Source: Lunularia cruciata (Eukaryota > Streptophyta > Marchantiopsida > Lunulariales > Lunulariaceae). Taken from it: a DNA stretch of 64,000 nt. A program made the translations under genes and the position numbers. Below are positions 35,340 through 63,279 of the stretch, piece by piece. The stretch is from positions 13,778,974-13,842,973 of the forward strand of contig OX419757.1 of NCBI GenBank assembly GCA_948567375.1. Direction: 5' to 3'. Each line of letters starts with the position of its first letter. Position 1 is the first letter of the stretch. The notes below the pieces were generated by a model. That model made no database searches. It was not told the origin of the DNA and saw only the letters and a list, made by a program, of their open reading frames with translations.

Positions 35340-35481
35340 CTTCATGAGAAGCTTCTCAAGAGCCTTGTATGTTCTCTATAAATACCAAAGCCCAAGCTCA
35401 TGTTAAGTATTTGTAGTTTCTATCATTCAAGTGCTCCAATGTGATCTTCCATTCTCTTATTTCTCTCCTCAGTCTTTTACA

Positions 35482-35494
35482 TTGGTATTAGAGC
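35482..35494 (+). promoter_or_regulatory. Primer binding site of element A
   Basis: TTGGTATTAGAGC directly follows the LTR terminus TTTTACA. It matches the widespread plant primer site TGGTATCAGAGC, complementary to the initiator methionine tRNA 3' end. Confidence 0.75.
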
Positions 35495-37392
35495 AAGAAT
35501 AGGATGGATGGAATTTATGAACCTCCAAATCCATGTCTCCCAAACCATTAGGATTTTTGTGTCCATGTACTACCCAAGCATCATTTTACACAATTCATCA
35601 TCTCATGCTTTGGGGAATTTTTTTGTAAATGAAATCACCTTGTCTGATGAACCCTTGATACTTTTGATTGTAATTTACAAAGAATAATGGACATATTGCA
35701 TTTGAGAGTTAACCTAGATGGTTGTAGATAGATAATTTGATAGACTAGTAACTATGGTGGCAATGCCTAAATTTATAGTTGCTATGCATCAACAAATCAA
35801 GTATTTTACTCAATTGTTGGAAGAAAGAGACCATCAATGACAAGAGCATGTAGATAGAGTACCATTTTAAGAAGAAGAAGAACAACAAACCTGATTTCCA
35901 AGGCCCAAGGTATTTGAAGGCAAGAATCTCTCAAGGGTAATGGAGAATTTTGTGTTATTGTGAAGCTACAAATCTTCAAAATGAATCAAGATAAATTCTC
36001 ATGGCTTCAAGCCAATTGGATGGTGTGGTAAAACTATGATGATGATTCCAAGTGGAGCAAGCTGAATGAAAATTTTTTGCACCAATATTTACATGGGAAG
36101 AATTCAAGAGCACAATAATTTGGAGATTTTAAGGTATAAATGCTACATGAGCCGCACAAGCTAGATTGGTAAAATTGAAATAAATTGAGTCTATGAGAAC
36201 CTAAGTCACTCAATTCCAAAATACCATAATGCAAATCCTGGATATATAAGAAAGCAAGCTCTTGATTGATCTATGAGGTTTTTGAAATCTTTGAGGTTGA
36301 TCTTTGAAATTGCACACCAAATTGGAAGTGACTATGTGGGAGCACAAATACTTAGAGGAAGCCATGTAGTTGGTTGAGTACTTTGATTCCTTGGTTGCAA
36401 CAACTTGGTCTTGGCCTTGACCTTCAAAAAACCTACCGACACATTACACATAAGTGGAGAGGCCGGCACCAATGGAGATTGATGCCATTCAATGGAGATT
36501 ACTTGGCATTGCAGATATAGAAAGATTGTGAAAAAATGGAGGTTTCTTTTGTTGTCACCAAATTGGACATCATATTGTTAAATGTCCACTCACAAATGTG
36601 TGACCTTGACATATTGCCTAAATGGAAATTTTAAAGCATGATGTTCAAGGAAACAAAGAATCTCAATGGGAGAGTTTGAGCCACCTATTTGGAACTTAGA
36701 TTAGTTCTAAAAGGATTGAAGGCTTGACCTATGCAAGTTTGTCTCACTTGCAAGGTATGATATCTAATTATTGTTGTAGGATTTTGGTTGATTTTGGAAG
36801 CTCAAAGAATTGCATGTCCTTGTAACTAACAAAGGAATTAGGTATTCTTATCAAGCCAATAAATGGAAATAGACTGATGATGGAAAATGGAAGAAAAAAT
36901 TCTACATTCTATACCTCACATTTTATTACATTCAAGATTGGAAAGGAATATTTGGAATGTATGAGGTTTGCAGTGGCACCTCTATACTAGGATGTCATTC
37001 TAAGTTTGTCTTGGCTTGAACATCATAAGGTTAAATTTGATTGGACCCAATGATAAATTCAAGTACAACACCAAGACCAAAATGACCAATTTTAGGTTTT
37101 TTGGCACCTTTGAGTAAGATACCTTAAAATAGTCAATCCCAAGATGGGAAGTTTGTCAATAAAGCAACCATAGAGCAAGCTTTGGAGGAAGATATTCCTA
37201 TTTTTATAGTGTAGATCAAGTCAATGGCACAATGGAGAATCTAATGAGGGCCAAAAGCCTCATCAAGCAATGGTTGATCAAATAATTCAAGAGTTTGTAG
37301 ATGTGTTTTTGGATGATTTACCAAAAGGGTTACCCTCTAATTGTGATATGCTCTTCAAGATTGAGTTATTGCCAAGTACTCCAGTGAGTAGA

Positions 37393-38132
37393 TGTAATAC
37401 TCCGAGGACAAGAGAAGAGAGAAAACACAGATCGCACACTCAAACATTTGATGCCCCAAGGGAGCACCTTCTCTTTATTATATAGACAAAGAGGATCTCC
37501 TCCAAGAAAACTCCACCATAGGATTAGGGACAAAGATAAGTGACATGTCAGCAAGCTCCACCCTTGGATTACTTACTTGGATGGGTGACCTGTCTGGTCT
37601 AGGTCCTATCTGGTTGGTCAAATGAGCATTGACCGGAGGGAATCTTTTAGGGAATCTTCCTGTAGGAATCTCAGAATCACATGAGTAAGGTACCGTTGGA
37701 AAGCTCTCGACGAGACAAACCAGGGGGAAGGAAGGCCAGCCTATCATCCATTGGGGGGGGGGAATCTGCACATTTTTGAGGCCTAATTCATCCGTTTAGG
37801 CCTCCGAAATTGCCTTCAAAGATTTCAGGCATATTTCGGTTCCTACCCTATTAGTAGAAGTCCCCTTTTGGTGATACCTCTTTCTGATCTGTTTAGTCCA
37901 TCATGTGTAACATCCTTCTAGATGTTACCAAACCAATTCTCACCTGTAAATCATATGTCTAGCTATTGGTTCTAAGGTTCTCAAGTCTATTTCGGTTTCT
38001 GCCCTATTAGTAGAAGTACTCTTTTGGTGATACTTCTATCTGATCTATTTTGACCATCATGTATAACATCATTCTAGATGTTACCAAACAGAATTTCACA
38101 TCTAGATCATATGGCTAACCCTTGGTATTACA
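37393..38132 (+). mobile_element. Solo LTR, family F, inserted in element A
   Basis: 740 bp from TGTAATACTCCGAGG to CCTTGGTATTACA, with inverted TGTAATAC/GTATTACA ends. It is flanked by a perfect 5-bp target duplication GTAGA (37388-37392 and 38133-38137). It interrupts the RT domain of A, so it is younger than A. The right third holds an internal duplication of about 155 bp (CCCTATTAGTAGAAGT at about 37848 and 38004). No internal element sequence remains, as expected after LTR-LTR recombination. Confidence 0.92.
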
Positions 38133-39865
38133 GTAGACCAATCTATTGGCTCTCACCTAAGGAGTTGGAAGAGCTTCAAGCAATATTGACGAGCTGTTGG
38201 AGAATGATTTCATAAAACATAGTACATCTCCTTGGGGATCACTAGTACTATTTGTCCCAAAGAAGGATGGAGGACTTCACTTTTGTATTATCATCATGGC
38301 CCCAACAAACATATAGTGAACAATGCATATCCCTTGCCTCAAATTGATGACTTGTTAGATCAATTAAGTTGAGCACAATACTTCTCCAAGTTGGATCTTC
38401 AAAGTGGCAATTGGCAGATTCTTATTGATAAAGAGGATGTGCAAAAGACTATCTTTCATACAAGGTATGTGCATTTTGATTGGAGAGTTTTACCTTTTGG
38501 GCTCACTAATGCTCTTGTAATCTTCATGGATCAAATGCATCGGGTGTTGGATGGCCTTTTGGATTGGTACATGGTGTTGTTCTTGGATAATATTTTAATC
38601 TATACCAATATGGAGGTAAAACACACAAATCATGTGCAAGAAGTCCTAAGATGACTACATCAATTGAAGTTTGATTGTAGGAACTCAAAGTGTGCTTTTT
38701 GGTAGAGGGAAGGTACCTTCTTGGGTCATAAGATCTCATTGGAGGGGACCAAGATGGGAGAGAAGAAAATCAAGGTCATTACTAAGTGGCCTACTGTAAA
38801 GGATTCCATAGAAGTGCGGGCATTCAATGGATTGGTAAGTTTCTATTGATGGTTTATCCACTATTACGTTCATGTGACTGCACCATTGATTGATCTTTTG
38901 GGGAAGACCTCAAGCTTTCAGTGGACCACCAAGCACAAAAGACATTCTAGAAGTTGAAACATATGGTGTCTTCAAGACCCATTCTTCAACCATATGATCT
39001 TCAACTATCTTATGTCTTTGATTTTGATTCTTCTAACTTTACCATTGGAGCTATATTGCAATAAGAATTTCCAAATAGGTTACATCTCATTGCCTTTTTT
39101 GTCTTGCCAACTAAACACCACAAAAAGGAATTACTCAGCTTGAGATCAAGAACAACTAGCAATGATTTATGCCACCAAGGTATGGAAGCATTATTTCTTG
39201 GAGAAACAAGTGATCATGCAAACTAATCACAAATCCTTATTACAAACATTACATTTGGAACACATGAAGAGTCAATATCATTGATGGGAGGAAAAACTAT
39301 AGCTTTTTGACATCAAAGTTGAGTACAAACACAATAGGTTCCAATCCATCCTCAATATCCTATCATGATAACTTGATTTGAGGATTCTTCCTCTCATCAC
39401 GATGGCAACTATGACATTATCAATTGATTCAAAAGTCCAAAATCAAGTTTAGGATTACTTTACAACAAGATCCCTTCTTTCAGATGGTACAAGGTCATCT
39501 TGCAACATATGACAAGGAATACAACATGTTCTCCTTCAAGGAAGGCCTTATATTTTATGAGAATTGTTTCAACCAAGAGTGATCTACTACTTGTGCACCT
39601 TCAAGAAGCCCATGAGTTACCTATCACTGGTCACATGGGCATGGACAAGACCTTGGGTACCCTACAACACCAATGGTGGTGGCCCAACATGGCACAAGAG
39701 ATTTGAGAGTTTTTTTGATCTTGTGAGAGCTACCAATGCAACAAGGCCAATGACCAAAAACCAAGTGGACTCCTTGAACCACTTCCCATCTCATTTGCTC
39801 AATGGGAACACATGAGCTTAAATCTCATCACATCCTTGGCAAAGGCTACCAAACCATCTGTAGCA

Positions 39866-40290
39866 TCGTACCTAGATTGCTCGGGTTCTGAAGTAGTAGT
39901 GTTGGTAGTCAAACGTATTTGGTAGTTAATCATAGACTACTTGTTGATGGTTAGATTTCATGTTTGGGGTAATGACTACATGTGGGAGATCACCATCACT
40001 TGCACCATTAGGTGTGCTATCAATATGACCATTAGGGTTGGAGATCTAGGTCAAAATTAGAGGTTTACCCTAGAATTGTAGCCCTAGAGAGCTCACTTCT
40101 TTGATGTTGAGTCTTTGAGTGCTGGCTATGGTGGACAAAAAGCCAATGAGCGTCACTTGGAGTCTCTTAGCTAGAGTGTGTGTAGCTTAATTGTAACTAG
40201 TGCCCACTTGTAGGCAGATTTTTGAGTGAATGATCAAGTACTAATTTGATTTGAGTTGATTTGAGTTTATGAAGAATTGATAACATCACA
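39866..40290 (+). repeat. Family B LTR-like repeat, copy 1
   Basis: TAGATTGCTCGG...GGTTAGGGTTGGAGATCTAGGTC-type sequence through AGTGAATGATCAAGTACTAATTTGATTTGAGTTGAT. Reverse copies lie at about 52490-52930 and 61890-62334. Its place directly 5' of the family B leader and gag suggests it is the 5' LTR. The exact ends are not defined. Confidence 0.65.
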
Positions 40291-43200
40291 AAAGTGACAA
40301 TTAAGGGGAAATTGGATGGAAGAATTGAGGGTGTTGGTGGTATTTCCAAGCTTAATTGATCATTGGTACCTAGATTGTGATTTAGATTTCCCTAAGAGTA
40401 ATTATATGCGGAAGTTGGGATCATTAGAAATTCCCACAAATTAGAAATTTAAAGATCTCCATCCTTTCAATTTGGCTCAAGTTGAGATTTAGTAGAGGAT
40501 TTGGTTGTCATCAAACTCTAGGGATTTATATCAAATTTTACACCGATTGTCAAATTTTGGGGAGGATTTATGTTAGATTTCAATGAGAGGAAGTTTGATC
40601 TCATTCTCAATGATCCTTGTAGCTTAGGAAGTAGATAGAGACTTTGATTATGTCAAATGCCAAATGGTGGCAGAGTCAGTCCGGTGTTAATTTATGAGAA
40701 GAAGGGTTTTTGTTTAACCTTCTTATAATTGGACCCCCTCCATTCTCTACTTTCTTTTTGTGCACCATGTTTGTGTGAGGTGATCTACTTTTAGAGCATT
40801 GGTGCTTTGGTGTGCTCTCAATAGTGAGGCTAGAGTGATGACCAGTCAGACTACTTGTGTTTCTATTTGGTGAGGTAGGAAGTGATAACTTACAGATCAT
40901 GAGAGTGTGTGTTGTGATGGTAGGTTATAGTTTGCCCTTTCCTCCTAGTGTAGCTATTGTAATTAGAGCTACATTAATGGATGGTGATTCTTGGTGGAGT
41001 ACTTGTGGTAGTTATTGTTGCAATTTTTAGTTCATGATTACTTTTTCATGATGGAGTTCTTTGGGGATTCTTGAGGAGATATCACGATAGTATGCAATGG
41101 ATTTACTTGGAGTGCCGCTCAATATCAATTTGTATCTCATTTCCCAATGCGGGAAGAGATTGACTCTAAGTTGGAGTTTGACACAAGAGCTGATTCAATT
41201 GAGAGTGCACTTAGTATATCCACACCATTGTTGTGGGACATGATGAGATTTATGGGGTCTCCAAAGACCCCATGTGTTACTCTAGTATAGTGGGTACCAT
41301 TGAGTTAGATGACTTTATCTAGGAGTTCAATAGTTGGTATGATCTATAGTAGATGCGGAACCCAACTTTGTTCATACCTTTCATGGCATGGAAAGGGTTG
41401 TTTCAATACTTGGAAGGTCTGGCAATGATGACTATCATGAGTTCAAGAGAGCTCACTTGGAGGAGATTGAGCTATGGAGACAATATTGGTCTCCAAACTA
41501 TATCTCCATCACTTTAGGCTTGGTTTCTAGGGGTAGATTGGTAGTACTTACAAGTTCTAGCTCTAGTAGTGTTGGTGAATCTATTGGAGATAGTACTACT
41601 ACAAATGGAGGTACTCTTACAAGATATGGTGTAGTACTAGGGTTTAACCCCATGGTAGAGTTCTTCTAGTGTTTGAGGTAAAATTACCAAGAGGTGTAGG
41701 TTGACAAGCTAAGAAAATTGCAAGAGTTCCAATGGAAGGTTGGAGAGAGCCTACACTCGCATGAGATGGTTAATCAGTTTTACTTAGGGAGTTGCTAAGG
41801 CCCAAAAAATCTAGTTTTGGTATGGGATTCTGGATAGGGAGTTGCAACATAGAGTGTGTGATGCTATGTTATTACATGCTACTTCACCTACTTTGGTAGT
41901 GGTCTTTGGTTTGGCTGAGCATATTGAGCTCAACATGGTGGAAGAGAGAGTGGTGACATCTGGATTTGGTATAGAGACCTCATCCATAATTGTTATTTCT
42001 TCTAGAGTGAAATAGAGTGCACCATGCTATGTTGGCTTCCAAGGGCAGAATGGATAGCCCAGATCCTAAGCAGCAAGTGGAAGGCCTTGTGGAGTTAGAT
42101 CCTTACCTTCATTTTTTGGGTTAGTAGTAGCCAATGAGTGATGGTGTTTCTTGTTGGACTTGTGGTGGACCTTACTACAAGAGAGAGTGTACTCAATGTA
42201 GTGTACATGATACCTCTGGTGCATCACAATCGGCATAGAGACAATGTGACCATTGCCACAGATTTGGTCACACTAGTGATCAATGTTTGGCCTTCACTTG
42301 GAGTTATTGAGTGGTGAAGTTGCTATGGAAGATAGTAGAGGAGCTCCAAGTCATGGAGGACATGCTGGTAGAGGATCCACACCTGGTAGGGGTGCAATAC
42401 TTGCCCTTAACTTTTGATACAACAATGGCTACTCAAATTAAGAAGTTGGAGCAAAGATTAGCTAGCATGGCCATTGCTCAAAGGAGATCAAATTTGGGTG
42501 CTTTGGCTTCCACTACTTATGCTGGTGATAGAGATATCTTGGACTTCATGTGCAGAGCAACATAGGTAGATGCATTTGCTGTAGTGACTAGGAGTGCAAT
42601 AAGTGCTTTATAGCATAGAGGAGCATCAATGGAGTTGGACTCATGGAGAGGAAAGGCTGCTAGACAGATCAAACTCCCCCAATCTTTACACTCTTTGAGG
42701 CACTACAGACAACATCCATGGCTCCTAAACATCCTAGTGTAGGTGTGGTAGGTGATGATAAGGTGCATGATAGACTATTTGCTAGTCAGCCACCTACTAC
42801 TACATTAATTGAGAGTAGCTTGATGTTGGGAGCGACTCAATTGATTATATGCTTCACTTTATTCTCAACCAATGACATGTTTACATTGGGAGTTGACCCA
42901 ACTCCAATGTCCTAACTGGCTATCACACCTTGTGATAATAGGGATGATGTGGTTCCTATTACTAGAGTAGAGGTGGTTGATAGTGGAGTTGACTTGGTTG
43001 AGGAGCATAGGATCCCTCAACAACCAATGGTTTATGGCAAGTAGCAATAACTAGATTGGAGGAGTTACCAACTAGACCTACCTTTGAGCAAGCATGATTC
43101 ATACTTGGAGTTGTCCTATTGGATAACAAGAGGGAGATTTTCCATTTAGTGGGACCTTCAAGGAAGGTCTACACACCATAGAGGGTCTTATTAGACTATG

Positions 43201-43740
43201 ATACATAACCCCTTATGTTGGGGAAGGCTATAGTTGTCGGTTTGGAGCTACAAAAGACCAATGTAGAGAGGGTCCATTTCAGATCCAAAAATCTATAGGG
43301 TGGTTCTATATAGTACATCACATATAGAGAGCTTGTTGTCCAAATTCGACCTGGTCATCTGATTGATAGCTTTGTGATGAGAGGTCAAGCTATTGTGATA
43401 GTAGTTGAGTTGTATGATGTGCTAGTTGGTGGAGCAATGTTATACCCCATGGGTTTCAATATTGACTATTAGGAGGAGACAACATCCTATAGACCATGTT
43501 GGCAGACAAGTGAGGGACGTATATGTTGGTACAAGTGGGATCATTCCTTCTACCTTGGATGTTCCATTGTGGAATTTTGAGGAGGTATTGCAGATTAGTA
43601 GTACATGCAGATTAGTTGGTGCAATAGGCTTAGAGTGGAGTCTTTGTACCACCAAGAGATCAATGTGAGGATGAGCTTTTGGAGTTGATTACCTTGTCAC
43701 CTTTGGATATCATACTCATTGCTTGGTATTATCCAATAGG

Positions 43741-45390
43741 TGAGTTATATCTATTGGAGTTTTTGGTGGGATTAGCATCAGACCAGCTATGGTATTACAA
43801 GTAGGTATCTAAGTATAGAGGTACTTTATGTAGAGAGAGATGAGACTACAAGGCAAATCTCTCTACATCATGGGGGACATTTGGCCTATTGATATCTTGA
43901 GTTATTACCAATGTCAACAATCAAGGGTTACCAAAAGACCCTACTAGTAAACATTTCATTGTTGGGGGTGTAGGATCTAGAGAGACATGGTCACATTCAT
44001 TTGGTGATTTCTAGATGGCCATGTTGGGGACATACACGTTCTGGTTGAGGGGTCAGGGTCTTTAGGATCCCTATTTTGGTGTGTTTTGGGAGATGCTACA
44101 TATTCTACAACATCTTTAACTTCATTAGTCCATTTCTCTAGCTTACATTTTGGAGAATGTCCTTTTGATGGGCAATTCTTGCACCCAAGTGGTGGTGAGT
44201 ACACATCAAGTTCATTCTTGGATGGGACCTACTATGTTGTTGGATGCAGCCAAAGTGGGATCACGGGCTCATTGTCTTTGTCTTTGGTGGATGAACCTCT
44301 TACCTAGAGAGGTTCTACAATGTGCTTATGATGGGATTTACCAACTTGACCACCTCACTATTGATCATCAACATCCTGGATGTTTGTTGCCAATCTTACA
44401 TGGTGGTAGTGGCTGATAGGTCACCTATGGCAATGGTGAACCTAGTTGGATAGCCTTGAGCTGTAATACCCATTCGTGCATGCGTGTGTATTATAATATT
44501 TAGCTTAGTATTACAAATACTTGAGAGATATTATTTATATAGAGATAAATGATGGTTCTACATTAGTCATGATTAGCTAAATTAAGTCATAGATAAGATA
44601 ATGGGGACCTTACTTTAGAGGAAGTAGAAAAGATGAGCACCACTATTTTGGTTTCTAATGTGTTGACTTGGTATTATTCCTAGGTATTTGGCTTTGAGAA
44701 AAGAGTTCAAAACTCTTGGGCCCGTAAGCCTTTTTTGTTTTGGATTCTTCTATAGTCCAAGGATAGCCCATGTGAAGGAATCCTTGACTTATTGGTTAGG
44801 TCAAGATAAGATCACATGCTTGGTGGAATATGCCCATGTGGATAAAAATTCTTTTATATGTTTTGACTTTACTTGACTTTTAGCCTAGTCACTCCAGTAA
44901 TTAGTAACTTTGGTGTGTAACTACTTCACAAGAATATAAACTAGGGGTGAGGAGGTACTCATCATCCTTTCATTTGCAACTATCTCTCTCTCATTGAGTT
45001 CTCTAGTGAGCATTGTCTTGAGTCTTGGAGTGTTAGCCTTGGAGGAGTATGATGGAGTTGGGATTCCTTGCCTTCTTAGTCCATGGTGTGCTACCATAAT
45101 AGCCATCAGAGGTTCATCTTGAGTGAGAGACAAGCCGGCTCACAGAGCCACTTTACCCACACTTATGAGTTTCCACTTTCATGTTTTTAAGAAGGGGGTC
45201 CTAGACTTTTTTTGGGACTCATAATTATTGCAGTTGGTGGAGCCCAACATCGATGAGGTTTTTGTGATAGCTTTTTGCACTTGTATTACTGCTATTCCAG
45301 TAGTGTTAGAGGCATCTAAGCATCAAATGTTAGCTTAGGCTATGGACTTGAACTGTTTGACTTGGATTGTGAGCCTTGGCTTAGCAAAGT
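43741..45390 (+). other. C5-cytosine DNA methyltransferase-like domain inside element B
   Basis: Lies between the retropepsin-like region and RT of element B. The ordered signatures of the DNA C5-methyltransferase fold are legible in the raw translation: an FGGI loop (motif I, SAM binding) near 43760; HIHLVISRWPCWGHT with the Pro-Cys pair of motif IV near 44016; an ENV triplet (motif VI) near 44150; VGSRAHCLCLWWMNLLP (motif VIII region) at about 44254-44304; PMAMVNLVG near 44427; and, beyond the inserted family C LTR, AMDLNCLTWIVSLGLA (C-terminal motif X region) at 45338-45386. In a live element this domain would be expected to methylate cytosine in DNA; its target is unknown. This copy is a fossil. 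DNA methyltransferase capture by retroelements has been reported in some algae and dinoflagellates (from memory). Confidence 0.78.
44462..45144 (+). mobile_element. Solo LTR, family C, copy 1, inside element B
   Basis: 683 bp from TGTAATACCCATTCG to GCCGGCTCACA, flanked by a 4-bp direct repeat GAGC (44458-44461 and 45145-45148). It interrupts the methyltransferase domain of B; domain homology continues on both sides, so it is a secondary insertion. A reverse copy of the same LTR lies at 48019-48711. Confidence 0.88.
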
Positions 45391-48018
45391 AGCATAGGAT
45401 GAGCTTGATAAGCATCACCACTTGAACACTTATGAGCTATATGCCTATCAAGACAATTCATGCACATGTTGAGGGTGATAGATTGAGTGGGCACGGTATT
45501 CATGGGACACAACCAATGGCTACTAGTGAGAGAGGTCCATCCAAGTGAGCATGGTCTACTTGGATTACACCCTTGGTCTTCTTGGGATGCAGCTAGAGGA
45601 CATATGGAGCTTGCAACTAGATTGGAGGGAGTTTTCTACATTGAGTTGAGACCTCTAGTTGTTGGGAGCATGACACTATTGCTCCCAAGGGCTTGGTGTA
45701 GCAGCCAATCAATACATCTTCCACTCCTACAATAGTTACAGATGATACTTGGGAGCTAGATTTTGGACTCAAATTTACAAGAGGGGAAAGACGTAGAGTT
45801 TGGAGTTTCTTGAGTAGCTACACAAGTTTTTTTACGTTCAATATGAAGGATTTGGGTGTTCTAAAAGGACTTAGTATTTGGATTGAGTTGATTAGTGATA
45901 CATTAGTTTTTTGACGTCCTTATCAATCTAGTGACATGGAGAGAGCATTGATTTAGAGCCAAAGTAGAGACCTTTTTGAAGTTTGTTTTGTAGAGATTTC
46001 ACATAGAAAGTATGCATTAGCTACAATGATGCCAACCAAGAAGGATATGCATGGAAACTACACAAATAGGCAGATGTGTGGAGATTACCGTCTTATCAAC
46101 CAACAAACTAAGTTTGATTGGTATGCCATGCCTACATTGGAGGATATCTTTGATGCATTTGGGCTTGCAAAGGTCTTCAATACTTTGGATCTTTGAGCAA
46201 GATATCATCAGTTGCTAATTAAGGAGGAGGATAAGTCCAAGATAACATTTTGGGCTATTGATCCTTATGATAAGAATGTATTATATTAGTGGAAGTTCTT
46301 ACTATTTGGGTTAAAGAATGCTCATGCCGAGTTTCAAAGTGTCATGCAAAGGATCCTAACAACATTGGATTTTGCTTGGTGTTATATTGATGACATTTTG
46401 GTCTATAGCACTATTGTGGAAGAGCATGAGAGGCATTTCTTGGAGGTATTTGAGAGATTGAGATCTCACGGACTCAAATAACATCTTGGGAAATGTAGAT
46501 TCTTCCACAAGCAGGTTGAGTATTTGGGTCACACTATCTACCCTAGAGGACTTGGTGATTAGTAGACCAAGTGGAGGCTATGCATGTATCCTTAGCCTAC
46601 GGATGTGAGCAAAGTGAGAGCATTCCTTAAGTTGGAAAACTTCTATTGCCAATATGTTAGAGGATTTAGTGCCATTGCCAAGGCATTGACAAAGCTGACC
46701 AAGCTTACATAAGAGTGGTGTTGGGGAGATGAGAAGGAGAGAGCTTTTTTAGAGCTCAAGGAGAGGTTGATATCTGCTCCTATTTTAAGGAGATTGATCA
46801 GAGGATGACCATTCAGGTTCACACTCATTGGAGTACATTGGGACTTGGAGTAGTGCTCATCCAACGTAATGATGTAGAGAAGGAGTTTGTAGTGGCCTAT
46901 GCTAGTGGGTACAACAATTCAATGGAGGCAAAGTATAGTTCATATGAGGAGAGTGCTTGGTAGTAGTATGAGCAGTAGTATATTTCTGATATTACCTATT
47001 TGGTAACTCCTTTACGCTCATCATTGATCATTAGCTCCTAAAGTGGTTGATGGAGTCCAACAAGCTTTCAAGGAATCTTGCATGATGGGCTCTGATTTTA
47101 TAGGAGTATGATTTTACGATTATTCATAGACCTAAAGTGGTCAATTGTGATGCAGATGGGTTGAGTAGAAACCCATGTCCCAGTTAGCAGGATCAAATAA
47201 GAGCATGTTGGCATGGTGAGACAAATGAGTAGATGGTGCTAGGTTGGCATGCATCTACCTATCTTTGTATATTTTTTGAGGCTTTGGTGGTATCTCTCTT
47301 AATGCATACAAGAGGAGTTATTGAGATTATAGATCCAAAGCGTGGAGAAAGTGGTACAGTTCAATGGGACATTCATGATGATGTCTTAGTGATAGATTAT
47401 CTTTGCATTGGTGTTGTAGGTGGCACAATTGGGGCCAAGGAGAGAGATTGTGTTTTTCAACAAGCTAGATGGTTCAGGTTGGAAGGTAGACACCTTCTTT
47501 GTGTATGGGAGGATGGTAGAGTGCAAGTAATACCACTTCCATCTCAAAGACCACAATTAGTTTATCATGCTCATGAGGGGCTAGGACAGTTTGGAGTAAA
47601 GCTTACATATAGCTTACTCTAGAGTCATTATTGGTGGTGTGGTATGTAGACCAATGTACATCAATTTGTTGCTAGATGTGTGGTTTGTGATTGAGTTAGA
47701 GCATCATTTTTAATGCTCCTACAACACAATTACACTCATTACCTATCATGTGGTGGTTGGGTTACCGTTGGAGTTTGGACTTTGTTGGACCTTTACCATT
47801 GATTGTGAAACATCATCGGTATGTTTTGGTTATGGTGGAGCATTTCTCCAAGTGGATTGAGTTGGTAGCACTTCTTGACAAGGCCAGTGAAGGGATGGCT
47901 TGCTCATTCTTGGATTGAGTTCTTAGTCATTTTGGTGCACCAACTGAGGTTTTGACTGATCAAGGTACAAAGTTCTTGGGAGAGTTTTAGGTATTGTGTG
48001 ACAAGGCTGTGATTGACC

Positions 48019-48711
48019 TGTGAGCCGGCCTATCTCTCACTTAGGAGGAACCTCTAATGGCTATTATGGTAACGCACCATGGACTAAGAAGGCAAGGAAC
48101 CCCAACTCCATCATACTCCTCCAAGGCTAACACTCCAAGACTCAAGACATTGCTCACTAGAGAACTCAATGAGAGAGAGATAGTTGCAAATGAAAGGATG
48201 ATGAGTACCTCCTCACTCCTTTTTTATATACTTGTGAAAATAGTTATGTACCAAAGTTACTAATTACCATAGTAACTCAAGTTATTAGACTAAAAGTCAA
48301 GTAAAGTCAAAAAGTAGAAAGGAATATCCATTCAGATGGGAATATTCCCCTAAGCATGTGGTCTTATCTTGACCCAACCACTAAGTCAAGGATTCCTTCA
48401 CATGGGATATCCTTGGACTAAAGAAGAATCCAAAACAAAAAGGCTTGTGGGCCCAAGAGTTCTCAACTCTTTCCTCAAAGCCAAACACCTAGGAATAATA
48501 CCAAGTCAACACACTAAAATCCAAAATAGTGGTGCTCATCTTTTCTACTTCCTCTAAAGTAAGATCCCCTCTATCTTAGCTATGACTAACTTTAGCTAAC
48601 CATGACTAATATAGAATCATCTTTTATTTCTATATAAATAATATCTCTTAAGTACTTGTAATACCAAGCTAAATATCACAATACCACACACATGCACAAA
48701 TGGGTGTTACA
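48019..48711 (-). mobile_element. LTR, family C, copy 2, reverse orientation
   Basis: 693 bp from TGTGAGCCGGCC to GGGTGTTACA, the reverse complement of copy 1 with moderate divergence. Flanks are GACC and GTCC, so a 4-bp target duplication is at best imperfect. It separates the integrase of the plus-strand B copy from the gag of a minus-strand B copy, a junction that simple insertion does not explain. Confidence 0.85.
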
Positions 48712-51700
48712 GTCCGCACTCCTTGGTAGTTTTTCCTCAAACAATAGAAGAACTTTACCATGGAGCTAAACCCCTATACTACACCACCTCATGTAGTAGT
48801 ACCTTCACTCATAATAGCACCATCTCCAAGAGATCCTCCAATGCTTCTAGAGCTCAAACTTGTGACTATAGCCAATCTACCCCTAGAAACTAAGCATGAA
48901 GTAATAGAGACATAGTTCAAGGACCAAAACTGTCTCCATAGCTCAATCTCCTCCAAGTGAGCTCTCCTAAAATCATGGTAGTCATCCATTGATGGACCCT
49001 CCAAATGTTGAAACAACCCCTTCCATACCATGAAGGGTGTGGACAAAGTTGGGTTTTGCATCTACTATAGATCACACCAACTATCAAACTCCTAGATGAA
49101 GTCATCCAACTCAATGGTATCCATTGTACCAGAGTAACGCCTAGGGCCTTTGGAGGCCCTATAAATCTTGTCTATGTCCCATAACAATAGTATGAACATG
49201 CCAAGTGCACTCTCAACTAGGTCAGCTCTTGTGTCAAACACCAACTCAAAGTTGATCTCCTCACTCACTAGGACCTGAGATACAGACTGATGCCAAGTGT
49301 CACTCCAAGTAAATCCACTGCATACGCAATGCTATCTCCTTTGGAATCCCCAAAGAACTTTTTTGTGACAAAGTAACCAAGAACTGCAACTTGCAACTGT
49401 AACTTTGCAAGTATCCCACCATGTACCAACACCACCAACTAAATATCACCAACTAATGTAACTCTAATTACAACAACTACACTAGGGGAAATGACAATCT
49501 ATAATCTACCATCACAACACGCACTCTCATGGTCTACAAGTCATCACTTCTTGCCTCACCGGAGAGAAATATTGATAGTTTGACTGGTCATCACTCCAAC
49601 CCCACTACCAAGAGCACACCAAAGCACCAAAGCACCAAAGCACCAAAGCTCTAAATTCAAGAAACTTCACACAAATACGGTGCACAAACAAGAAGCAAAG
49701 AATAGAGGGGATCCAATCACAAGAAGGCTAAACAAAAACCCTCCATCTCATCATCAATCAACACTCGATTGACTCTACCACCAATTAACATTTGACATAA
49801 CCGGAGTACTTATCTACTTCTTGAGCTACAAGGATCACCGGAGAATGGGATCAAAGTTCTTGCTAAAATTTGACATAAACCCTTCACAAAATCTGACATA
49901 AATTTGACGTAAATCTCTAAATTTGGTTGACTACTAAATCCTCTACTAACTCTTCACTCAAGACAAATTGGAAAAATTAGTATTGTCCAATCTCTAATTC
50001 ATGGGAGAGAGTTCCTAACTCCACCTTCAATTTCATTTTTTGAGCTCAACTCGCACCAGATTGGTCTTGTGTTCACCTCCTGAGCTCAAAATCACAACTA
50101 CCACTATTGACTTTGCCTTTCTCTCTCTAGGAACACTTAAGGTGCCTAGCTGTGGAGCCTATAGATCAGAGGTTGTAGATTAACCTATCTCTACTAGTTT
50201 GAGTGTGTGTAGAACCCAACCTGTAAAACCTTCCGCTCTAGGTTTTGGTATTCTTGCTACCGTGTAAGGTGATAATGTGCAACCTAACCTATCATCATAA
50301 CACACACTCATGGTCTATTAGTCATCACTTCCAATATTATCAAGAAGAAATACATAGCACTCTTAGAAGGAAAGAACCTAAGTGCAATGCCCGCACATCA
50401 ATCCAAACCAACTAGGTGTACAAACAAGCATGCAAGCACGGAGAGGATCCAACCACAAGAAATCAACAACAACTCTTCATGCTTTTGGTGGAATTCAACT
50501 TCAGAGCTCCCTACCTTGTCCTCAAGTTGCTTTCAATTTGTACTCCAGCTTCCTCAATTCTGCACTTCAGATTTCAGCCAATTCCTAATCCAAGTGTAGA
50601 ACTTCTATCTCTTTTGTTGGAGAAAATCCTATGAAACTGAGATGGGTGTAACTTTCTCTATGTGGCTTGAATCCAAGTTCTAGGATTCAATGGAAAACTT
50701 GTGAGATAAGATTTCCAATGATATGAAATATGCCTCAATTTGATTACTACAGCTCCCTTGACAAGCTCCTAAACTTGGCCAATTGCTCGTGGGTTTTTAC
50801 CCTAATTTCAAAATCCATATTTTGGGGTTTGCTCTTGGTTCTTGGCAATTTTTCCTAGATTTCTGATTCAGAAGAACACTTGATCCTCAAAAAATCCCTA
50901 GCAACATGAAACCCTCAATCATAGTCACAATGTAGGAGAATTGACATCCAATCAAGATGGAAGATAAAAATTGCTCTACTGAGCTTATCACAATATCTGC
51001 ATCAAAGTTTTTGGCATCAATTCTTACTCTCTATGGACCCAAAGTCAACCAAAGTTTTCACAATAGTTTTTTGTGATCTTGTCTAACCCTTTACAAAGTT
51101 TAATACCCTAATCCAACCTCAAACCCCAAATATGGATCAATTCTTGAGCTGGGCTAACTTGTGAGCTCTACAGACCCAAGTCTACTTGATCCAAGACTCC
51201 AAATTTTCTATTCAACAAATTCACATGAAATCTTTGCACAAATGTGAAAACGCTAACCACCAGCAAGATTGGAAATTTTCACAAGGTGTATCAAACCACA
51301 ACTTTAGGAATGACGAAAATTCCAAACCTGATTAGCATCTCATCTCCAACACCTCACTTTCCAAAACTATAACTTCAATTGACCAGATCTGACTAAAGAT
51401 TGATCAAATTTTTATATTATTTCAGCTCAGCACTACAAACCCTTTGTCATCTGTCCTATCCCCTTAACAGATCATGAAAATGGCTAACATAGCTCTCCAA
51501 ATTGTCTATCTTGTCTTCTTGGGTATGAATTCTACCCCCTTACTTCAATTGATCATATCTCTCACAGACTTGACTTAAATCTCTCAAATTTGGTCTCAAA
51601 ATTGTAACATGTCTACTCTTCTCTTTAATCGTGGTCTTTTTTCCTTGAATGCTCTCCCTAAACTCCCCTAATCATCCCAAAGTTCCCAAATTCTCTTCTT

Positions 51701-52489
51701 GGAAACCAATCTCATGCAATTTTGTCTTTTAGCTTTTCACCTTTTGACAAGTGGACCCCACAACTCCACCTTGAAGCTCATGAGGAAAAATTTAGGCATT
51801 TCACAACTATAGGAGCACATATATTGCTAAGTCCCAGACTTGCTTGTAAGTTAGCACTAGAAGGATGATAGGATGCAGGTTTCCCATCATCGACGTGATG
51901 AATGAATATTGCCCCAAAATGTACCACCATCCAGTCCTATAAGCCGTCACGGTGTAGAATCTGAAGCCTGATGAGAAAAGGATTTGGGAGTGGCAGATTG
52001 GGAGCATGGGACACCTCATGCTCAAATGTGGCCTCCGATGGTCTACCACTTGTGCTTTGCTACAACTTTCACTCCCAACGTCCTCCTCCCTCTCAAGACT
52101 CCTTAACTAAAACACACCTCTATCTCTCCACTCGCACTCCTCTATATCCATCAAAGCTCTCAAACATAATAAGATCTTAATCCATGTGGCCAATCACATA
52201 TATGTACATAGATTGCTCACATGGCAACATCTCATCCTTTGGATCTATCATACAACCTACTCCACTAATGTAGAGATAACCATGATAGTTTATTTTTTTA
52301 CAGGCTCTGTAAACCACAATACAACATTACTTGAAATCAAATCTCTTTGGCTCTAAATTTGGCCAATGCTTCCGCACATAATCACTCCCAAGGAAATCAA
52401 AATTGTGATCAAGGTACCACAATCCACCAGACTTGGAGATAGCACCACCACCACCCTCAGTTCATGCATCCAATTTCATCATAACTCTC
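48712..52489 (-). mobile_element. Family B element, minus-strand copy, gag and leader only
   Basis: The minus strand at 49061-48789 reads GPSMDDYHDFRRAHLEEIELWRQFW, clearly the same gag as at 41388 in the plus copy. Upstream of it (49.1-52.5 kb) is leader sequence, much longer than the 1.1-kb leader of the plus copy and including an apparent internal duplication: segments at about 49480-49770 and 50270-50500 resemble each other. Nothing of protease, methyltransferase, RT or integrase from this copy is present. Fossil. Confidence 0.7.
49617..49651. repeat. Short tandem repeat, 10-bp unit (ACCAAAGCAC-like)
   Basis: Three and a half units of ACCAAAGC(AC) in the leader of the minus-strand B copy. 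The equivalent place in the plus copy has single TTGGTGCTTTGG-type units, so the expansion happened after the copies separated. Confidence 0.8.
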
Positions 52490-52930
52490 ACTTCTCTATT
52501 GTAATCAGTTCATTTACACCACTCAAATCACACTCAATCAGATCAATACTTGATCTGTCATTCAATGATCTACCAACAATTGGGCATTGATTACAGTCAA
52601 GCCACACCCATTTTAGCTAAGAGACTCTAGGTGATGCTCACCGGCTTTCTATCCACTCCAGCCAGGAACTCGAAGGCTCAACAATAGAGAAGTGAGCTCT
52701 TTGGAGTTGAACTCCCAAGGTATACTCTTGACTTTGACCTAGGTCTCACGCAAATGGTCCCATTGATGGCACACCTGACAGTGCAAGTGACAGTGGGCCC
52801 CACCATGTAGCCAATACCCAAAACACAAAATCTGACTGATGGAAAGTAGTCTTTGAGTAATTGCCAAAATAACCCTAACTACTATCATTGTTACTCCAAT
52901 ATCCGAGCAATCTAGATGCAAAGCTACAAA
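52490..52930 (-). repeat. Family B LTR-like repeat, copy 2 (reverse)
   Basis: Reverse-complement match to 39866-40290, including ATCTAGATTGCTCGGATATTGGAG-type and TTTGACCTAGGTCTC-type blocks. Position: 5' of the minus-strand B leader, consistent with a 5' LTR. Ends approximate. Confidence 0.65.
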
Positions 52931-53922
52931 TGGCGTGACATTTGCAATATAATGGAAATTAGGAGTTATTTTCTAAATGTCCAAGAAAACCATGCCAACT
53001 TGCACTTTGATATATTGAGAAATGGCATCCAATTTTCAACTTATGATTCTTTCAAATGTATCTCAATTGATTCCTATCATCCACTATGATAGTTCAATGT
53101 CTTATTGGTGTTAGCACTCTAAAAGATTTGTAAGCTTCAAGTGAGCTACATTTCCAATAGCCTTTCTATTGCAAAGCTACCTAATGGTATTTGTGAGTGA
53201 CAATAACCCATTCATGGTTACTTTTATAGGTGCACATTGGGATTGCTTGCTATAGATATCAATCCTTTTGCCAACCAACTCATCCAAGTTTTTATAATAG
53301 GTATCAAGTTTGCCAAGGAATTGAATCTACTCAATCAACTTCATTAGCAAATCTTTGGAAAGTTCCAATCTTTGAAAAACTTAAATCATTACCCATTTGT
53401 GGCTTGCATCAATGATGCCAAATTCAATGAGGCTATGCTCATTGTACTGCCAATGTTTTGCTTGAAACCAATTCATCAAACACCTAATACATATTGCACA
53501 AATATCACAACACAAATTAGGCTTGAAATGAATGTCTTGCAAGAGCAAGTAGGGTAAGACAAAGGATCATCATTGTTGTAGAGAATAAAAAAATGAGGCA
53601 TTCTACCACCCTTGTGTCTTGTGTCTTGTGGCTTGTCAAGTTCTAGCAAAATGATTTGATTCTACAAGATGACAAGAATATCCATTTGAGAGATTTAGTT
53701 GTTCATGCCACAAATGATCAACGTATTTACTCCCAAGTTTTTCCTTACTGAACAAGTGTATTGAGCTCATTCAATGCCAAAGACTCTTGATGTCAAATAA
53801 CACCAAATAGATTATATGATATTTGACACAAGTTAAAGTTCTTGAAGTTTTGTTTTGACTCTCCTCATTCTTTGATCCAAGAATTATTGGACTCTCCTCT
53901 TTGATCATGATCTCTTCTTTCA
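52931..53922. other. Unassigned sequence beside the MULE remnant
   Basis: AT-rich with short frames. The C-terminal part (SWIM-type zinc finger) of a MULE transposase could be expected on the minus strand here but is not recognisable. Confidence 0.3.
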
Positions 53923-54800: not shown

Positions 54801-56214
54801 CTTGATCTGCAAGTTTTGCAATATAAACATAATTGTTGGATAACATCTTCGCTTCCAAAAAGTTCTAGAGCCCTTGTTTTGTCCATCTTAAAGATACTCT
54901 TGCCAATTACAAAACCTTTTCTTGCAATTTCCCAAATATGAGGTAAACCAAAGGCCCACTAGCTTGGTTGCAACACTACCAGAAAAATTGTTAGCAAAGT
55001 CATCACCAAAACAATTTGAGTAACCAATCATAATTATGCTAGTTTTAGGTTCATGATGAAATCAGAACTTGCCTTATGCTTGGCAAAGAAATAAGGAAAG
55101 AGATTTGCATTATATTGGACCCGCATTGCATTGGTAGCAGAATTAAGGATTGAGAGATTCAAGTCATCAGCATGTGAGGCTCAAGAGAATGCAATATTCA
55201 TATTGAAAGTTAGAAAAGTATATAGCAATCAGACCCATGTTCTATCCTTGTGCAGTTCAACTCTCACTATTGACCACTTGATGAACCAAGGCCTCACAAG
55301 GTTAACTTTTCACGCATGTGACAAAGACCACCTGATGACAAGGACACCACTTGGCAAGGACAGAACCTTGTGAGGATAGAAATGGGAATTATATAGTAAA
55401 TATGTGATAATAGAGTAGAAGGTCTTTTAATTTTCATTCCATTGATTTAGTATTATAGTCTAGTTGTAAAAGATATCACTTTCTAATTAATGAACTTAAA
55501 ATTTATTAGTTTCTTTATAATGTGTCATATTATCATCATAATTCATTTAAGAACTTGTTATATATTAAATAGTAATAATCAAGTAACAAGGAGAAAGGTT
55601 ATACTTTGACTTGATCTTTCTTTAACATTGCAAACTAAAATATATCTCTACTCTTTCAAAATGCATGTACAAAAGATATTTGATAAAGGAGATATATCAA
55701 TCATATCCATTCTTATTTTGGCTATTATGTGAAATATATCTTTTATAATGATCAGATTATTCCTTTGAACTGTATAAAGATCTTTCCAAGGACATAAATA
55801 AAAAAGAGACCTGATTATTAACTTTTATTATTACCTTTACATCAAATAATCTTACTCTATTCAGAGACAAAATAGAAATTTTAAATAATTTCATACCCAG
55901 AAATAATCTATTTAAAAATTTTGTTTTATTTTTATACACCTCTAATATTTAAATTATTTTATTATATATTTTGTGTGTTATATGACTTATTAGAAACCCC
56001 TTTCAAATAGTGGCAGTTATATTTTTTATCATATTGATAAAATGTTCATAATTGAATTATTCTGATCAGCAACATATGCAAGTAGCAAAAAATTTTAAAC
56101 TATAAAATAAAATACATCTCAATATCTCATCATGGTTCAACATATTTTTAGGGTAAACAGAGACCTACTTGGAAAAAGAAAAAGTGTTTAATCTTTTCTG
56201 AAATAAATAAATAA

Positions 56215-56260
<46 letters not shown>

Positions 56261-56766
56261 CTATACTTACAAAAACCATTATTTCTTATTACACAAAGGA
56301 TAGATCTATCTGGTGAGCCATCTTCACACTATTATTAGTTTTTACTTTTTTACTTTTATTTTTGTAGATTAGTTAAAGGTTAGGAAAGCTATTAGGGCTA
56401 AAATACAAGATTGTGTTACTCATCCTTGGCCTAGAAAATAACCATGCAAGAGGACAAGAATGTGACATAGGAAAAACACCATGCCTCTTTTGCCTTCAAG
56501 GATCCTAGGGACAAAGATCCTTGTGGTCGTGATCTTCATGGTTGTAAATTTGTGCATAGAATATCAAAAAAGTTTGAGAAATCAGAGTTGAGAACTTGAG
56601 GGATTGGGTGAGCTTGTGTTTGGGTAGGTATTTTCTTTCAACAAATAGATTGTAAGTGCATACAATGACTTCTCTACCCGCCAAAAAGGCATAGAGTAGT
56701 TTTGGAGGTGATTCTAAATCACTTGGTGTGAGTAAGTGTGCGCTCCATTGTAGAGAGTAATTCATT
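54801..56766. other. AT-rich spacer between MULE remnant and element D
   Basis: 55.4-56.25 kb is very AT-rich without frames. A frame at 55131-55373 is unrecognised; it contains a local repeat (GACAAAGACCACCTGATGACAAGGACACC). 56.3-56.77 kb adjoins the LTR of element D and holds nothing recognised. Confidence 0.3.
56201..56260. repeat. TA microsatellite with AAAT lead-in
   Basis: (AAAT)4 followed by about 20 TA dinucleotides with one C interruption. Confidence 0.95.
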
Positions 56767-59700
56767 TATAAAAGACCATGAGAGAAATAAGAGAATGTAA
56801 GATCACATTGAGACTCTTGAATGAAGGAAACTCCAAATGCCTAGCATGAGGTTGGATTGTGTTATTTATAGGGAAAATACAAGCCTCTTGAGCCATCTTC
56901 TTAAAGTCCAAGCTAAACTAATCAAGAAGCGTCCTTCTGGAAGCCGCCTACTTGGCATGCAAGTTAAGCTAGACGGGAAGCTTCCTTCTAGAAGCCACCT
57001 ACTTGGTGTGCAAGCTAAGCTAGTCAAGAAGCTTTCTCTTAGAAATCACCACTTGGCATACACATTACCCAATACTTGGAAAGTACCAAGTAGCTTCCTT
57101 GATGCTTCTAGCATATTTTTATAATTCTTGGTAATTTGGCCTATTTTCTACTTTTTTAATCTTGATTAACTTGTCTATAAACTCCATGTTTTTACATATT
57201 CCCACACCACTAGTTGGTGATGGCTTTGTCACCATGGAAGACTTCAAACTCTTGGATGGTTGTTTGTGCATTGTAGAGATGAGAAAGAGACTCTCAAGTA
57301 GCATAATGAAGAAGATACCTTTTCCAAAGGACTTTGTACTCAATATGTTATTGGTAGCCATGTTGAATGTGACAATGTGCAAGGATACAATTAGCTTCAT
57401 ACTCCTTATGATAGTTCATAGGGACAGGAGGAGGAGGAGGTTGGACACAAGAGGAAAAAGAAGATGGATTAGAAAAAAAGGGTTTCAACTTGGAAACAAA
57501 AAAGACAGGGTGGATTTGCATATGATAAGGTAAGGGAAGTTGATAAGAAGGGTGAAATCAAATTGACCTATCCAATTAGGAGTAAGTTTATAAACTTGAG
57601 TATCAAGTGGGAAGGGTAGGTTACTAGCAAAAAGCATAACCTTATCATAGAGTTGATAGTAAGATGACAATGGTGTTGGTACATGTATTGTTTTTGATAA
57701 TTTTGAGCAACAAGGAGATGAGATTTAGCTTGTTGTAGGGATTGGGATATTGTGGTCAAGATGGTGGAATTATGAGGGACATGAGATGGAGGAAGAGCAA
57801 GAAGAGAATCTAGAACAAGTGAGTCTTGGCCAAAATTAAGGAAGAAGGGAGAGAATTAGGTGCTTGCCTAATTGGAGTTATTGTAGGCAAACTCTACAAC
57901 TACAAGACATTCATCTTAGTTGGTATGGTGAATGCTAAAAAGACAAAAAGCATATCTTCCAAGGTAAAATTTTCATATTCAATTTTTCCATCATTTTGAT
58001 GATGATAGGCCTTGGATAAAGCAAGCTTGGTGTCAACTAGTTGGAAGAGAGCTTGCCAAAATATTTTGGTGAATCAAGGATCACAACTAGAGATGAGTAC
58101 ATGAGGCATCCCATGATGCTTCAAGATATTTTCAAAGTAGATCTAGGCCAGTGTTGGAGCATCCATTATATCCAAGGTTGGTGCCAAATGGATTTGCTTA
58201 CTAAGCTTATCAATGAACACCACAATGGTTGTGTGACCTTGCTTTATCTTGGGCAAGGATATGATGAGATTTAAACTCACATGTTCCCATCAAGTAGATG
58301 GGATGGGAAGTGGTTGGAAGAGTCTACTTGGCTTTTGGTTAATGACCTTGTTGCATTGGTAGCTCTCACAAGATTGGGATAAATTCTTGAACCTCTTGTG
58401 CCATGTTTAGCCACCACCGTTGGCATTGTAGGGTACTCAAGGTCGTATCCACACCCATGTGACCAGCAATTTGTAAGTCATAGGTTTCTTGAAGGCACAC
58501 AAGTTTTAGATCACCCTTGGTTGGAACATAGATCTGGTTCTCATAAAATAGAAGGTCTTCCTTGAAGAAGGGGCTGTTTTCAATGTAATGTGTTGCAATT
58601 TGATCTTGTACCATTTGACTAAAGGGGTCTTGTTGTAAAGTGGTACTAAACTTGATATGGACTTTTGAGTCAATTTAACACTATCATAATTGCCATCATA
58701 ATGAGAGGAAGAGTCTTTAAACCAGGTCATTATGATAGAGCATCAAGGATGACATAGAACCTATTGGATTTGTACTCAACTTTGATGTCAAACAATTGTA
58801 GTTGTTCCTCCCATTGATGATGTTGATTCTTCATGTACTCCAAATCTAATGTCTACAACAAGAGTTTGTGATTGGTTTGCATGATTACTTGTTTACCCAA
58901 GAGATAATGCATCCATACCTTAGTGGCATACACCATTGCTAGTTTTTGATCTTGAGTAGAGTAATTCTTTATGGTGTTTAGTTGGCAAGACACAAAGGCA
59001 ATAAGATGTAACTCATTTGGAAATTCTTGCTGCAACAGAACTCCAATGGAAAAGTTAAATGCACCAATTGTCTTGAAGACACCATATGTTTTAACTTCTC
59101 AAATGCTTCTTTGTGCTCAGTTTTCATTGAAAGATTCAGGTCTTCCTCAAGAGTTTGATCAATGGTGCAGCGACATGAGTATATTGGTGGATGAACTTGT
59201 CAATCTATTAAATGCCTGCATACCTGTATTTAAATGCATTATACCTACATTTTTGTGACATCCTTTGGAGTATGCTACTTAGTAATGGCCTTGCTTTCTC
59301 CTCTCTTATCTTGATTCCCTCCAATGACACCTTATGACCCAAGAGGTAATTTTGTTTTGCCAAAAGGCACATTTTGACTTCTTGTAGTAAAACTTCTAAT
59401 GATGTAGTCTTCTTAGGACTTCTTTCATGTCATTGTGTGTTTTACCTCCATCTTGCTATAGATTAAAAATATCATCCAAGAACATACCATGTACCAATCC
59501 AAAAGCCCATCCAACACCCAATGCATTTGACCCATGAAGATTGTTAGAGCACAAGTGAGCCCAAAAGGTAAAACTCTCCATTCAAAATGCCCATACCTTG
59601 TGTAAAAGGTAGTCCTTTGCACATCCTCTCTATCAATAGGAATCTACCAAAAGTCACTTTGTAGATCCAATTTGGAGAAGTATCGTGCTCCACTCAATTG

Positions 59701-62930: not shown

Positions 62931-63279
62931 TCCATGTTGTTTGTTATAGATATACATAGTCACTTGGATGAAATTCATGGATCAAGGGTCTATAACCTCC
63001 TCTTCAAATTGGAGCATAGCATAAGGTATCCCTATGTTGAGCAATCACCAAGTTCTCAAATGCCATCAGCATCACTCTCCAAACGTTCTTTACCCGTTGA
63101 GAACATGCGCTCATCCATACATTTGGATCATCCAAGTCCAAAACTATAGTAGCATCTTGGAAAATGGCTATAAGTAAATCTGGATTTTGTCCATAGAGTA
63201 GGAAGTAAGGAGAGAAGGATGTTAAGGAGACTTGCCGGTTGAATTAATAGCCCATGGCCAACCAAGATAGTTGTAGATT
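62931..63279. other. Unassigned spacer
   Basis: Short frames only, including 62925-63149 plus, which resembles nothing known. Lies between the family B-like fragment and family F LTRs. Confidence 0.3.

What the first reader, a model, noticed from the sequence alone, without database searches (positions are those of the whole stretch)
43741..45390. Retroelement family B carries a C5-cytosine DNA methyltransferase domain
Five signatures of the C5-methyltransferase fold occur in the correct order (FGG near 43760, WPC near 44016, ENV near 44150, RAH block near 44260, AMDLN block near 45338). They lie between a retropepsin-like region and an RT with YIDD on the same strand. DNA methylation normally silences such elements, so a self-encoded methyltransferase is paradoxical. 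It could protect a fraction of copies from excision or mutation, or it could shape the host methylome. Related captures are known in some algae and dinoflagellates (recalled, not checked); I do not know of a described family in this lineage.
Basis: partly seen in the sequence, partly recalled or inferred. Interest (0 to 1): 0.88.

Follow-up and report, generated by a model that had tools for sequence, protein, structure and literature searches.

The report
Dead retrotransposon carrying DNA methyltransferase
A long-dead jumping gene in this window carries the remains of a DNA-methylating enzyme, and related proteins, some with part of the same layout, occur in a moss genus and in liverworts, so some plant jumping genes appear to bring along an enzyme of the very system that normally silences them.

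Summary
In detail: all five motifs lie where stated, in order, on the + strand. Raw pieces match no Pfam or NCBIfam model because the copy is decayed: stops, at least three frame changes, and a 683-bp solo-LTR-like insert of another family at 44462-45144 that cuts the AMDLN block off from the rest. A read-through query found four relatives at E 2.6e-45 to 4.2e-33; their profile found 457 proteins at E<=1e-3, 120 of them listed, seven named (Sphagnum, Calypogeia, Marchantia). PF00145 passes its cut-off in 11 of 18 relatives scanned; best PDB matches are DNMT3A/B. Six of 120 hold a retropepsin-like motif and the start of the methyltransferase in one open frame. RT, RNase H and an integrase remnant follow in the window: Ty3/Gypsy order. 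DNMT3-bearing retrotransposons, including a Gypsy element of the alga Klebsormidium, are published (PMC5890265), so this is a new family of a known kind. This copy is dead and as CpG-poor as neighbouring elements lacking the domain, so nothing suggests self-protection. Host identity and copy number were not established: the genome search did not complete.

The parts
40432..41691 (+). 5' part of the carrier (read as LTR end to gag, inferred), shared with a second, inverted copy
   Evidence: 76.6% identity to 50006-48722
42143..42289 (+). gag zinc-knuckle region (two CCHC-like motifs)
   Evidence: tblastn of Marchantia P0044, E 6.7e-8, 50% identity; CCHC reading recalled; Pfam gave only a weak unrelated hit (E 0.12)
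43035..43520 (+). retropepsin-like region
   Evidence: tblastn of Calypogeia P0064, E 6e-40, 46%; relatives read VLLDSGAQ here, a recalled protease signature; no Pfam protease hit in relatives
43753..43827 (+). methyltransferase motif I (FGG), frame 1
   Evidence: tblastn P0028, 52% over 25 residues
43824..44051 (+). methyltransferase, motif IV (WPC), frame 3, 3 stops
   Evidence: tblastn P0006, 60.5%, and P0028, 54%; stop count
44051..44365 (+). methyltransferase, motifs VI (ENV) and VIII (RAH), frame 2, 3 stops
   Evidence: tblastn P0028, 51%; 54% to P0002 and Sphagnum P0054, stop count
44349..44461 (+). methyltransferase, stretch before the insert, frame 3
   Evidence: tblastn P0006, 49% over 44349-44471
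44462..45144 (.). 683-bp solo-LTR-like insert of another family, TG...CA ends, GAGC on both sides
45145..45479 (+). methyltransferase C-terminal part, motifs IX-X (AMDLN), frame 3, 4 stops
   Evidence: tblastn P0010 over 45144-45479, E 6e-25, 46%; stop count
45565..45630 (+). stretch after the methyltransferase, also found in relatives
   Evidence: tblastn P0010 and P0028, 41% over 22 residues
45957..46481 (+). reverse transcriptase (two open pieces, frame 3; YIDD)
   Evidence: PF00078 E 3.3e-10 on the 46290-46481 piece; the 45957-46196 piece gave no hit
46733..46963 (+). RNase H
   Evidence: PF17919 E 2.3e-8
47700..47918 (+). integrase core remnant
   Evidence: PF00665 E 2.7e-4, below its curated cut-off
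48019..48711 (-). inverted copy of the insert's LTR, at which the carrier's integrase breaks off
   Evidence: 88.5% identity, ends

Best explanation
It is a decayed Ty3/Gypsy-type LTR retrotransposon whose polyprotein held a DNMT3-type C5-cytosine methyltransferase between the protease-like region and reverse transcriptase (shown, about 0.97 for a retroelement-borne C5-methyltransferase). Relatives occur in mosses (Sphagnum) and liverworts. The working element most likely made the enzyme as part of Gag-Pol, released it with protease, carried it in the particle beside RT, and used it to put 5mC on its own new cDNA or at the insertion site (inferred; no step tested here). The copy in this window is dead: damaged by point changes that look like methyl-cytosine decay, and split by a later LTR insertion.
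For: Four relatives at E 2.6e-45 to 4.2e-33, 457 at E<=1e-3. PF00145 above its cut-off in 11 of 18 different relatives scanned. The top 29 of 43 PDB rows for P0010 are DNMT3A/B/C, best 2e-7; the profile of 35 relatives gives 1.4e-7; weaker rows are HhaI, HaeIII, DNMT2 and plant DRM, and no DNMT1 appears to E 0.1 or E 1. A phage DNMT3-like enzyme, itself E 9e-31 to DNMT3B, aligns with P0010 from motif I to X. Protease-like motif plus methyltransferase start in one frame in 6 of 120. Motif IV Cys kept in 84 of 84 relatives that cover it, Asn of ENV in 47 of 47. RT, RNase H and integrase follow on the same strand. De novo CG methylation in yeast by published SymbioDIRS-Dnmt3 enzymes (PMC5890265, section 10).
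Against: Raw window pieces give 0 Pfam and NCBIfam hits and the 95-aa open piece finds no methyltransferase in the PDB. The motif IX-X part of P0010 alone gives no PDB hit. P0010 also matches 302 phage records by tblastn (E 2e-9 to 5e-8 in the five rows listed, all under 60% identity), so DNMT3 class rests on PDB rank, without a tree, and a prokaryotic source is not excluded. AlphaFold models were poor (mean pLDDT 42.6 and 43.9); the fold search gave nothing at E<=0.001 (best DNMT3A, E 0.13, then HhaI). None of the 18 relatives scanned shows an RT or protease model. Invariant Cys is weak evidence of selection, as the database holds open frames only. The published Klebsormidium Gypsy enzyme showed no activity in yeast, judged inconclusive by its authors.
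Confidence: 0.6

Rival explanations
1. Passive passenger: the domain was captured once and is carried by copying of the element without any function in transposition.
For: The copy here is as CpG-depleted as two RT copies of another family without a match to the domain (0.065, versus 0.072 and 0.074), so no benefit shows; several relatives are cut short, lack inner stretches or differ at motif residues (Glu of ENV 40 of 47; P0030, P0052 and P0064 lack inner stretches).
Against: The domain is found in Sphagnum, Calypogeia, Marchantia and this host, and in the same place relative to the protease-like region; relatives P0010 and P0028 still hold motifs I to X in one frame; purifying selection was reported for the Klebsormidium element. 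No dN/dS could be done here.
Confidence: 0.25
2. The methyltransferase works on the host genome or chromatin rather than on the element's cDNA, for example biasing where new copies are tolerated. This overlaps in part with the best explanation (insertion site).
For: Moss DNMT3b acts de novo on nuclear DNA (PMC6453930, passages); the published discussion weighs effects on the host methylome (PMC5890265, section 11).
Against: No data here; [quoted passage not shown]
Confidence: 0.2
3. A host DNMT3 gene lay here and retroelements inserted around it; no real fusion.
For: The domain is broken into several frames with an LTR inside it.
Against: Relatives carry the protease-like motif and the start of the methyltransferase in one open frame, 6 of 120, and zinc knuckles with methyltransferase in Marchantia P0044.
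Confidence: 0.02
4. The five motifs are chance matches in a decayed sequence.
For: Raw Pfam scan gives 0 families.
Against: tblastn E down to 1.5e-54, 105 bits versus at most 22.7 in 20 shuffles.
Confidence: 0.005

Closest known systems
KnitGypsy-Dnmt3 of the charophyte Klebsormidium nitens (de Mendoza et al. 2018, PMC5890265)
   Same: Gypsy-type element of a streptophyte with an unrearranged DNMT3-type domain in the Pol polyprotein (section 9 read).
   Different: Reported in an alga, with DIRS-like repeat structure; its sequence was not held, so common descent is untested. The named relatives here are land plants.
SymbioDIRS-Dnmt3 and SymbioLINE-Dnmt of dinoflagellates (same paper)
   Same: Retrotransposon-borne C5-methyltransferase; the DIRS versions methylate CG in yeast.
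   Different: DIRS and LINE elements, not Gypsy; independent captures according to the paper.
Plant host DNMT3 (Physcomitrella DNMT3a/b, PMC6453930; passages only)
   Same: DNMT3 class, found in non-flowering plants.
   Different: Host genes, not in retroelements; PpDNMT3b is needed for CHH methylation.
DRM methyltransferases of plants
   Same: Related catalytic domain (4onj, recalled to be tobacco DRM, E 0.013 with P0010; DRM2 E 0.53 with the profile).
   Different: DRM has rearranged motif order (stated in PMC5890265); here the order is I, IV, VI, VIII, IX-X.

Membership tests
C5-cytosine DNA methyltransferase (PF00145) | Profile match of the family above the curated cut-off | tested here: met
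   11 of 18 different relatives scanned: 4 of 4, 7 of 10, 0 of 4 new ones, which hold only the start of the domain; the window pieces themselves do not match
C5-cytosine DNA methyltransferase (PF00145) | Motifs I, IV (PC), VI (ENV), VIII, IX, X in order | tested here: met
   motif names recalled; motif IX is eroded in the window copy
DNMT3-type | Closest to DNMT3 among characterised classes | tested here: met
   Top PDB rows are DNMT3A/B/C; no tree with reference enzymes was built, and phage enzymes also match
DNMT3-type | Fold of DNMT3 catalytic domain | tested here: inconclusive
   Models too poor; top fold hit DNMT3A at E 0.13
Ty3/Gypsy LTR retrotransposon | RT, RNase H, then integrase | tested here: met
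   integrase hit below its curated cut-off
Ty3/Gypsy LTR retrotransposon | Pair of own LTRs with target-site duplication | tested here: inconclusive
   5' part shared with other copies; 3' end lost at the 48019-48711 junction
DNMT-encoding retrotransposon | Methyltransferase fused in frame with retroelement proteins | tested here: met
   6 of 120 relatives by motif search, P0044; fusion to RT in one frame not seen in the 18 scanned
DNMT-encoding retrotransposon | Purifying selection on the domain | not testable with these tools
   No DNA of relatives could be fetched
KnitGypsy-Dnmt3 | Same capture event as Klebsormidium | not tested
   No Klebsormidium name among the 120 listed relatives; 337 further hits were not listed

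The most novel reading that the evidence does not exclude
One ancient capture of a DNMT3 domain by a streptophyte Gypsy element, before land plants, has lived on in bryophytes and in this host as an autonomous lineage that writes its own 5mC; the lineage could have served as a source or decoy of de novo methylation, and could have vanished where DNMT3 itself was reported absent (angiosperms; PMC6453930 passage).
Probability: 0.25. Interest if true: 0.8.

Novelty: new member of a known kind. Interest (0 to 1): 0.58.

Why it matters
Elements that carry the enzyme class used to silence them test what self-methylation does for a transposon. The published cases are an alga and dinoflagellates; a family in Marchantia and Sphagnum would make the question testable by knock-out and bisulfite sequencing in a tractable plant. 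I saw no description of a land-plant family in the listings of ten full-text searches of open-access papers (of 270 and 67 papers found only 20 each were listed, and searches found none) nor in the parts seen of the five papers opened. Subscription papers and preprints are largely not covered, and PMC12344493 speaks of 'streptophytes' without detail in the passages seen.

Tried and rejected
Pfam on whole frames was turned back for stops. Pfam and NCBIfam on pieces: 0. PDB search with the 95-aa open piece: only an unrelated polymerase at E 0.71. First protein search with a single-frame read-through: none at E<=10 among 391 candidates. DNA of relatives: viral contigs twice and genome contigs once, none confirmed. 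AlphaFold on 35 and on 39 aligned relatives: poor; fold search without support. C-terminal part of P0010 in the PDB: no hit. tRNA and Rfam (gathering threshold): nothing in the window. Own-genome search for PF00145 and for the DNA: not completed. Chance motifs and host-gene-with-insertions were rejected (see rivals).

The 457 relatives were listed only to 120; counts on relatives refer to these 120, to the rows that cover a column, or to the 18 given to Pfam.

Full report
What is there. On the + strand between 42.1 and 47.9 kb lie, in order, a gag zinc-knuckle region, a retropepsin-like region, a C5-methyltransferase, reverse transcriptase (PF00078, E 3.3e-10), RNase H (PF17919, E 2.3e-8) and an integrase remnant (PF00665, E 2.7e-4, below its cut-off). 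Of the seven carrier pieces given to Pfam, four gave no relevant hit: the first RT piece, a piece between RNase H and integrase, the zinc-knuckle piece and a gag piece. RT, RNase H, then integrase is the Ty3/Gypsy order.

The five motifs. Searches place FGG in frame 1, WPC in frame 3, ENV and RAH in frame 2 and AMDLN in frame 3. The raw pieces match nothing in Pfam or NCBIfam. A first protein search in one frame found nothing; one that used both frames found four relatives, 49-52% identical over 66-80% of the query, with E 2.6e-45 to 4.2e-33. A profile of these found 457 proteins with E<=1e-3 among the 7999 candidates scored; 120 are listed. Seven bear names: Sphagnum tenellum, Sphagnum troendelagicum, Calypogeia fissa (2) and Marchantia polymorpha (3). 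The other 113 come from unnamed jgi, ncbi or ena records, presumably metagenomes.

Chance. The real 40001-50000 stretch scores 105 bits with P0010; the best of 20 dinucleotide shuffles scores 22.7. None of eight relatives hits the window outside 42143-45630 at E<=1e-3.

Decay and insertion. The methyltransferase holds stops (3, 3 and 4 in the three main pieces) and changes frame at least three times. A 683-bp segment with TG...CA ends and GAGC on both sides, 44462-45144, separates the C-terminal part from the rest; a 693-bp inverted copy, 88.5% identical, lies at 48019-48711 without a clean duplication. It looks like a solo LTR of another family. The second copy of it joins the broken integrase to the gag region of an inverted second carrier copy at 48722-50006, so the carrier has no 3' end here, and that second carrier copy does not reach the methyltransferase region.

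Class. P0010 and P0028 span motifs I to X in one frame. The best PDB matches of P0010 are DNMT3A/B/C (29 of 43 rows, best 2e-7), then HhaI 0.012, 4onj (recalled to be a DRM) 0.013 and DNMT2 0.042; a profile of 35 relatives agrees. A Pseudomonas phage enzyme that itself matches DNMT3B at 9e-31 aligns with P0010 from motif I to X, 25% identity, and with the profile at 97.8% probability. The motif order is not that of DRM. Against: 302 phage records match P0010 at E<=0.01, so a prokaryotic source is not excluded; the C-terminal part alone finds nothing in the PDB; structure models were too poor to use. No tree with reference enzymes was built.

Fusion in relatives. Of 120 relatives, 6 hold both the VLLDSGAQ-like protease motif and the start of the methyltransferase in one frame (P0064, P0078, P0082, P0083, P0107, P0109). 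Of these only P0064 runs on to motifs IV-VIII, with an inner stretch missing. None gave a Pfam protease hit, so the protease label rests on a recalled motif. Marchantia P0044 joins zinc knuckles to the methyltransferase. PF00145 reached its cut-off in 11 of the 18 relatives scanned; the seven misses are P0030, P0052, P0078, P0082, P0083, P0107 and P0109. None of the 18 shows RT; the longest of the 120 has 533 residues, so whole polyproteins were not sampled.

Catalytic columns. Cys of motif IV 84 of 84, Asn of ENV 47 of 47, Glu of ENV 40 of 47, His of motif VIII 40 of 41, first G of FGG 92 of 104. Motif X was covered by 5 or 6 relatives only. As the database holds open frames only, this is weak evidence for selection. 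No DNA of relatives could be fetched, so dN/dS was not done.

Methylation footprint. CpG observed/expected is 0.065 in the methyltransferase, 0.072 and 0.074 in two RT copies of another family, 0.055-0.18 in the 2-kb bins of 32-64 kb and 0.58-0.89 in those of 2-32 kb. The CHG count over its reversed control is at most 0.51 in 15 of 16 bins on the right (0.88 in one) and 0.72-1.52 in the bins of 2-32 kb. The right half thus looks long methylated at CG and CHG. The carrier is no better off than elements without a match to the domain. That the depletion stems from 5mC deamination is inference.

Known relatives. DNMT3 in a Gypsy element of Klebsormidium and in dinoflagellate elements is published (PMC5890265; outline, sections 9, 10, 11 and passages). 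PMC12344493 (passages) says some DNMT3 members sit in LTR Copia and DIRS elements, as reported in streptophytes and dinoflagellates. PMC6338049 (passages), PMC9516144 (passages) and PMC6453930 (passages) show no land-plant element of this kind in the passages seen. Listings of ten searches gave none. Whether the land-plant family and Klebsormidium share one capture is open.

Open. Host identity, copy number in the host, selection and activity. The genome search did not complete.

Noticed in passing
window 2001-32000 versus 32001-64000: Sharp change in CpG observed/expected (0.58-0.89 to 0.055-0.18) and in CHG content, a boundary between ordinary DNA and retroelement-filled DNA that looks heavily methylated.
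   Followed up: partly
window 48019-50006 and 52369-52933: Chimeric junction: integrase of the carrier, inverted LTR, then gag region and a 5' part of an inverted second carrier copy; could come from recombination between the inverted LTRs at 44462-45144 and 48019-48711.
   Followed up: partly
window 35356-39844 and 58248-63864: Another Gypsy-type family, matching pieces in opposite orientation at 75.8-77.8% identity; its RT at 38328-38897 matches the carrier's RT at E 2.6e-21.
   Followed up: no
window 261-881: Copia-type reverse transcriptase piece, PF07727 E 6.7e-11; four other long ORFs of the window gave no credible Pfam hit.
   Followed up: no
window 8864-9179, 15617-15784, 37809-38120: Short tandem duplications: 158 bp (93%), 86 bp (100%, overlapping by a few bases) and 156 bp (80%).
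   Followed up: no
window 56200-56269: Stretch that matches its own reverse complement in several registers.
   Followed up: no
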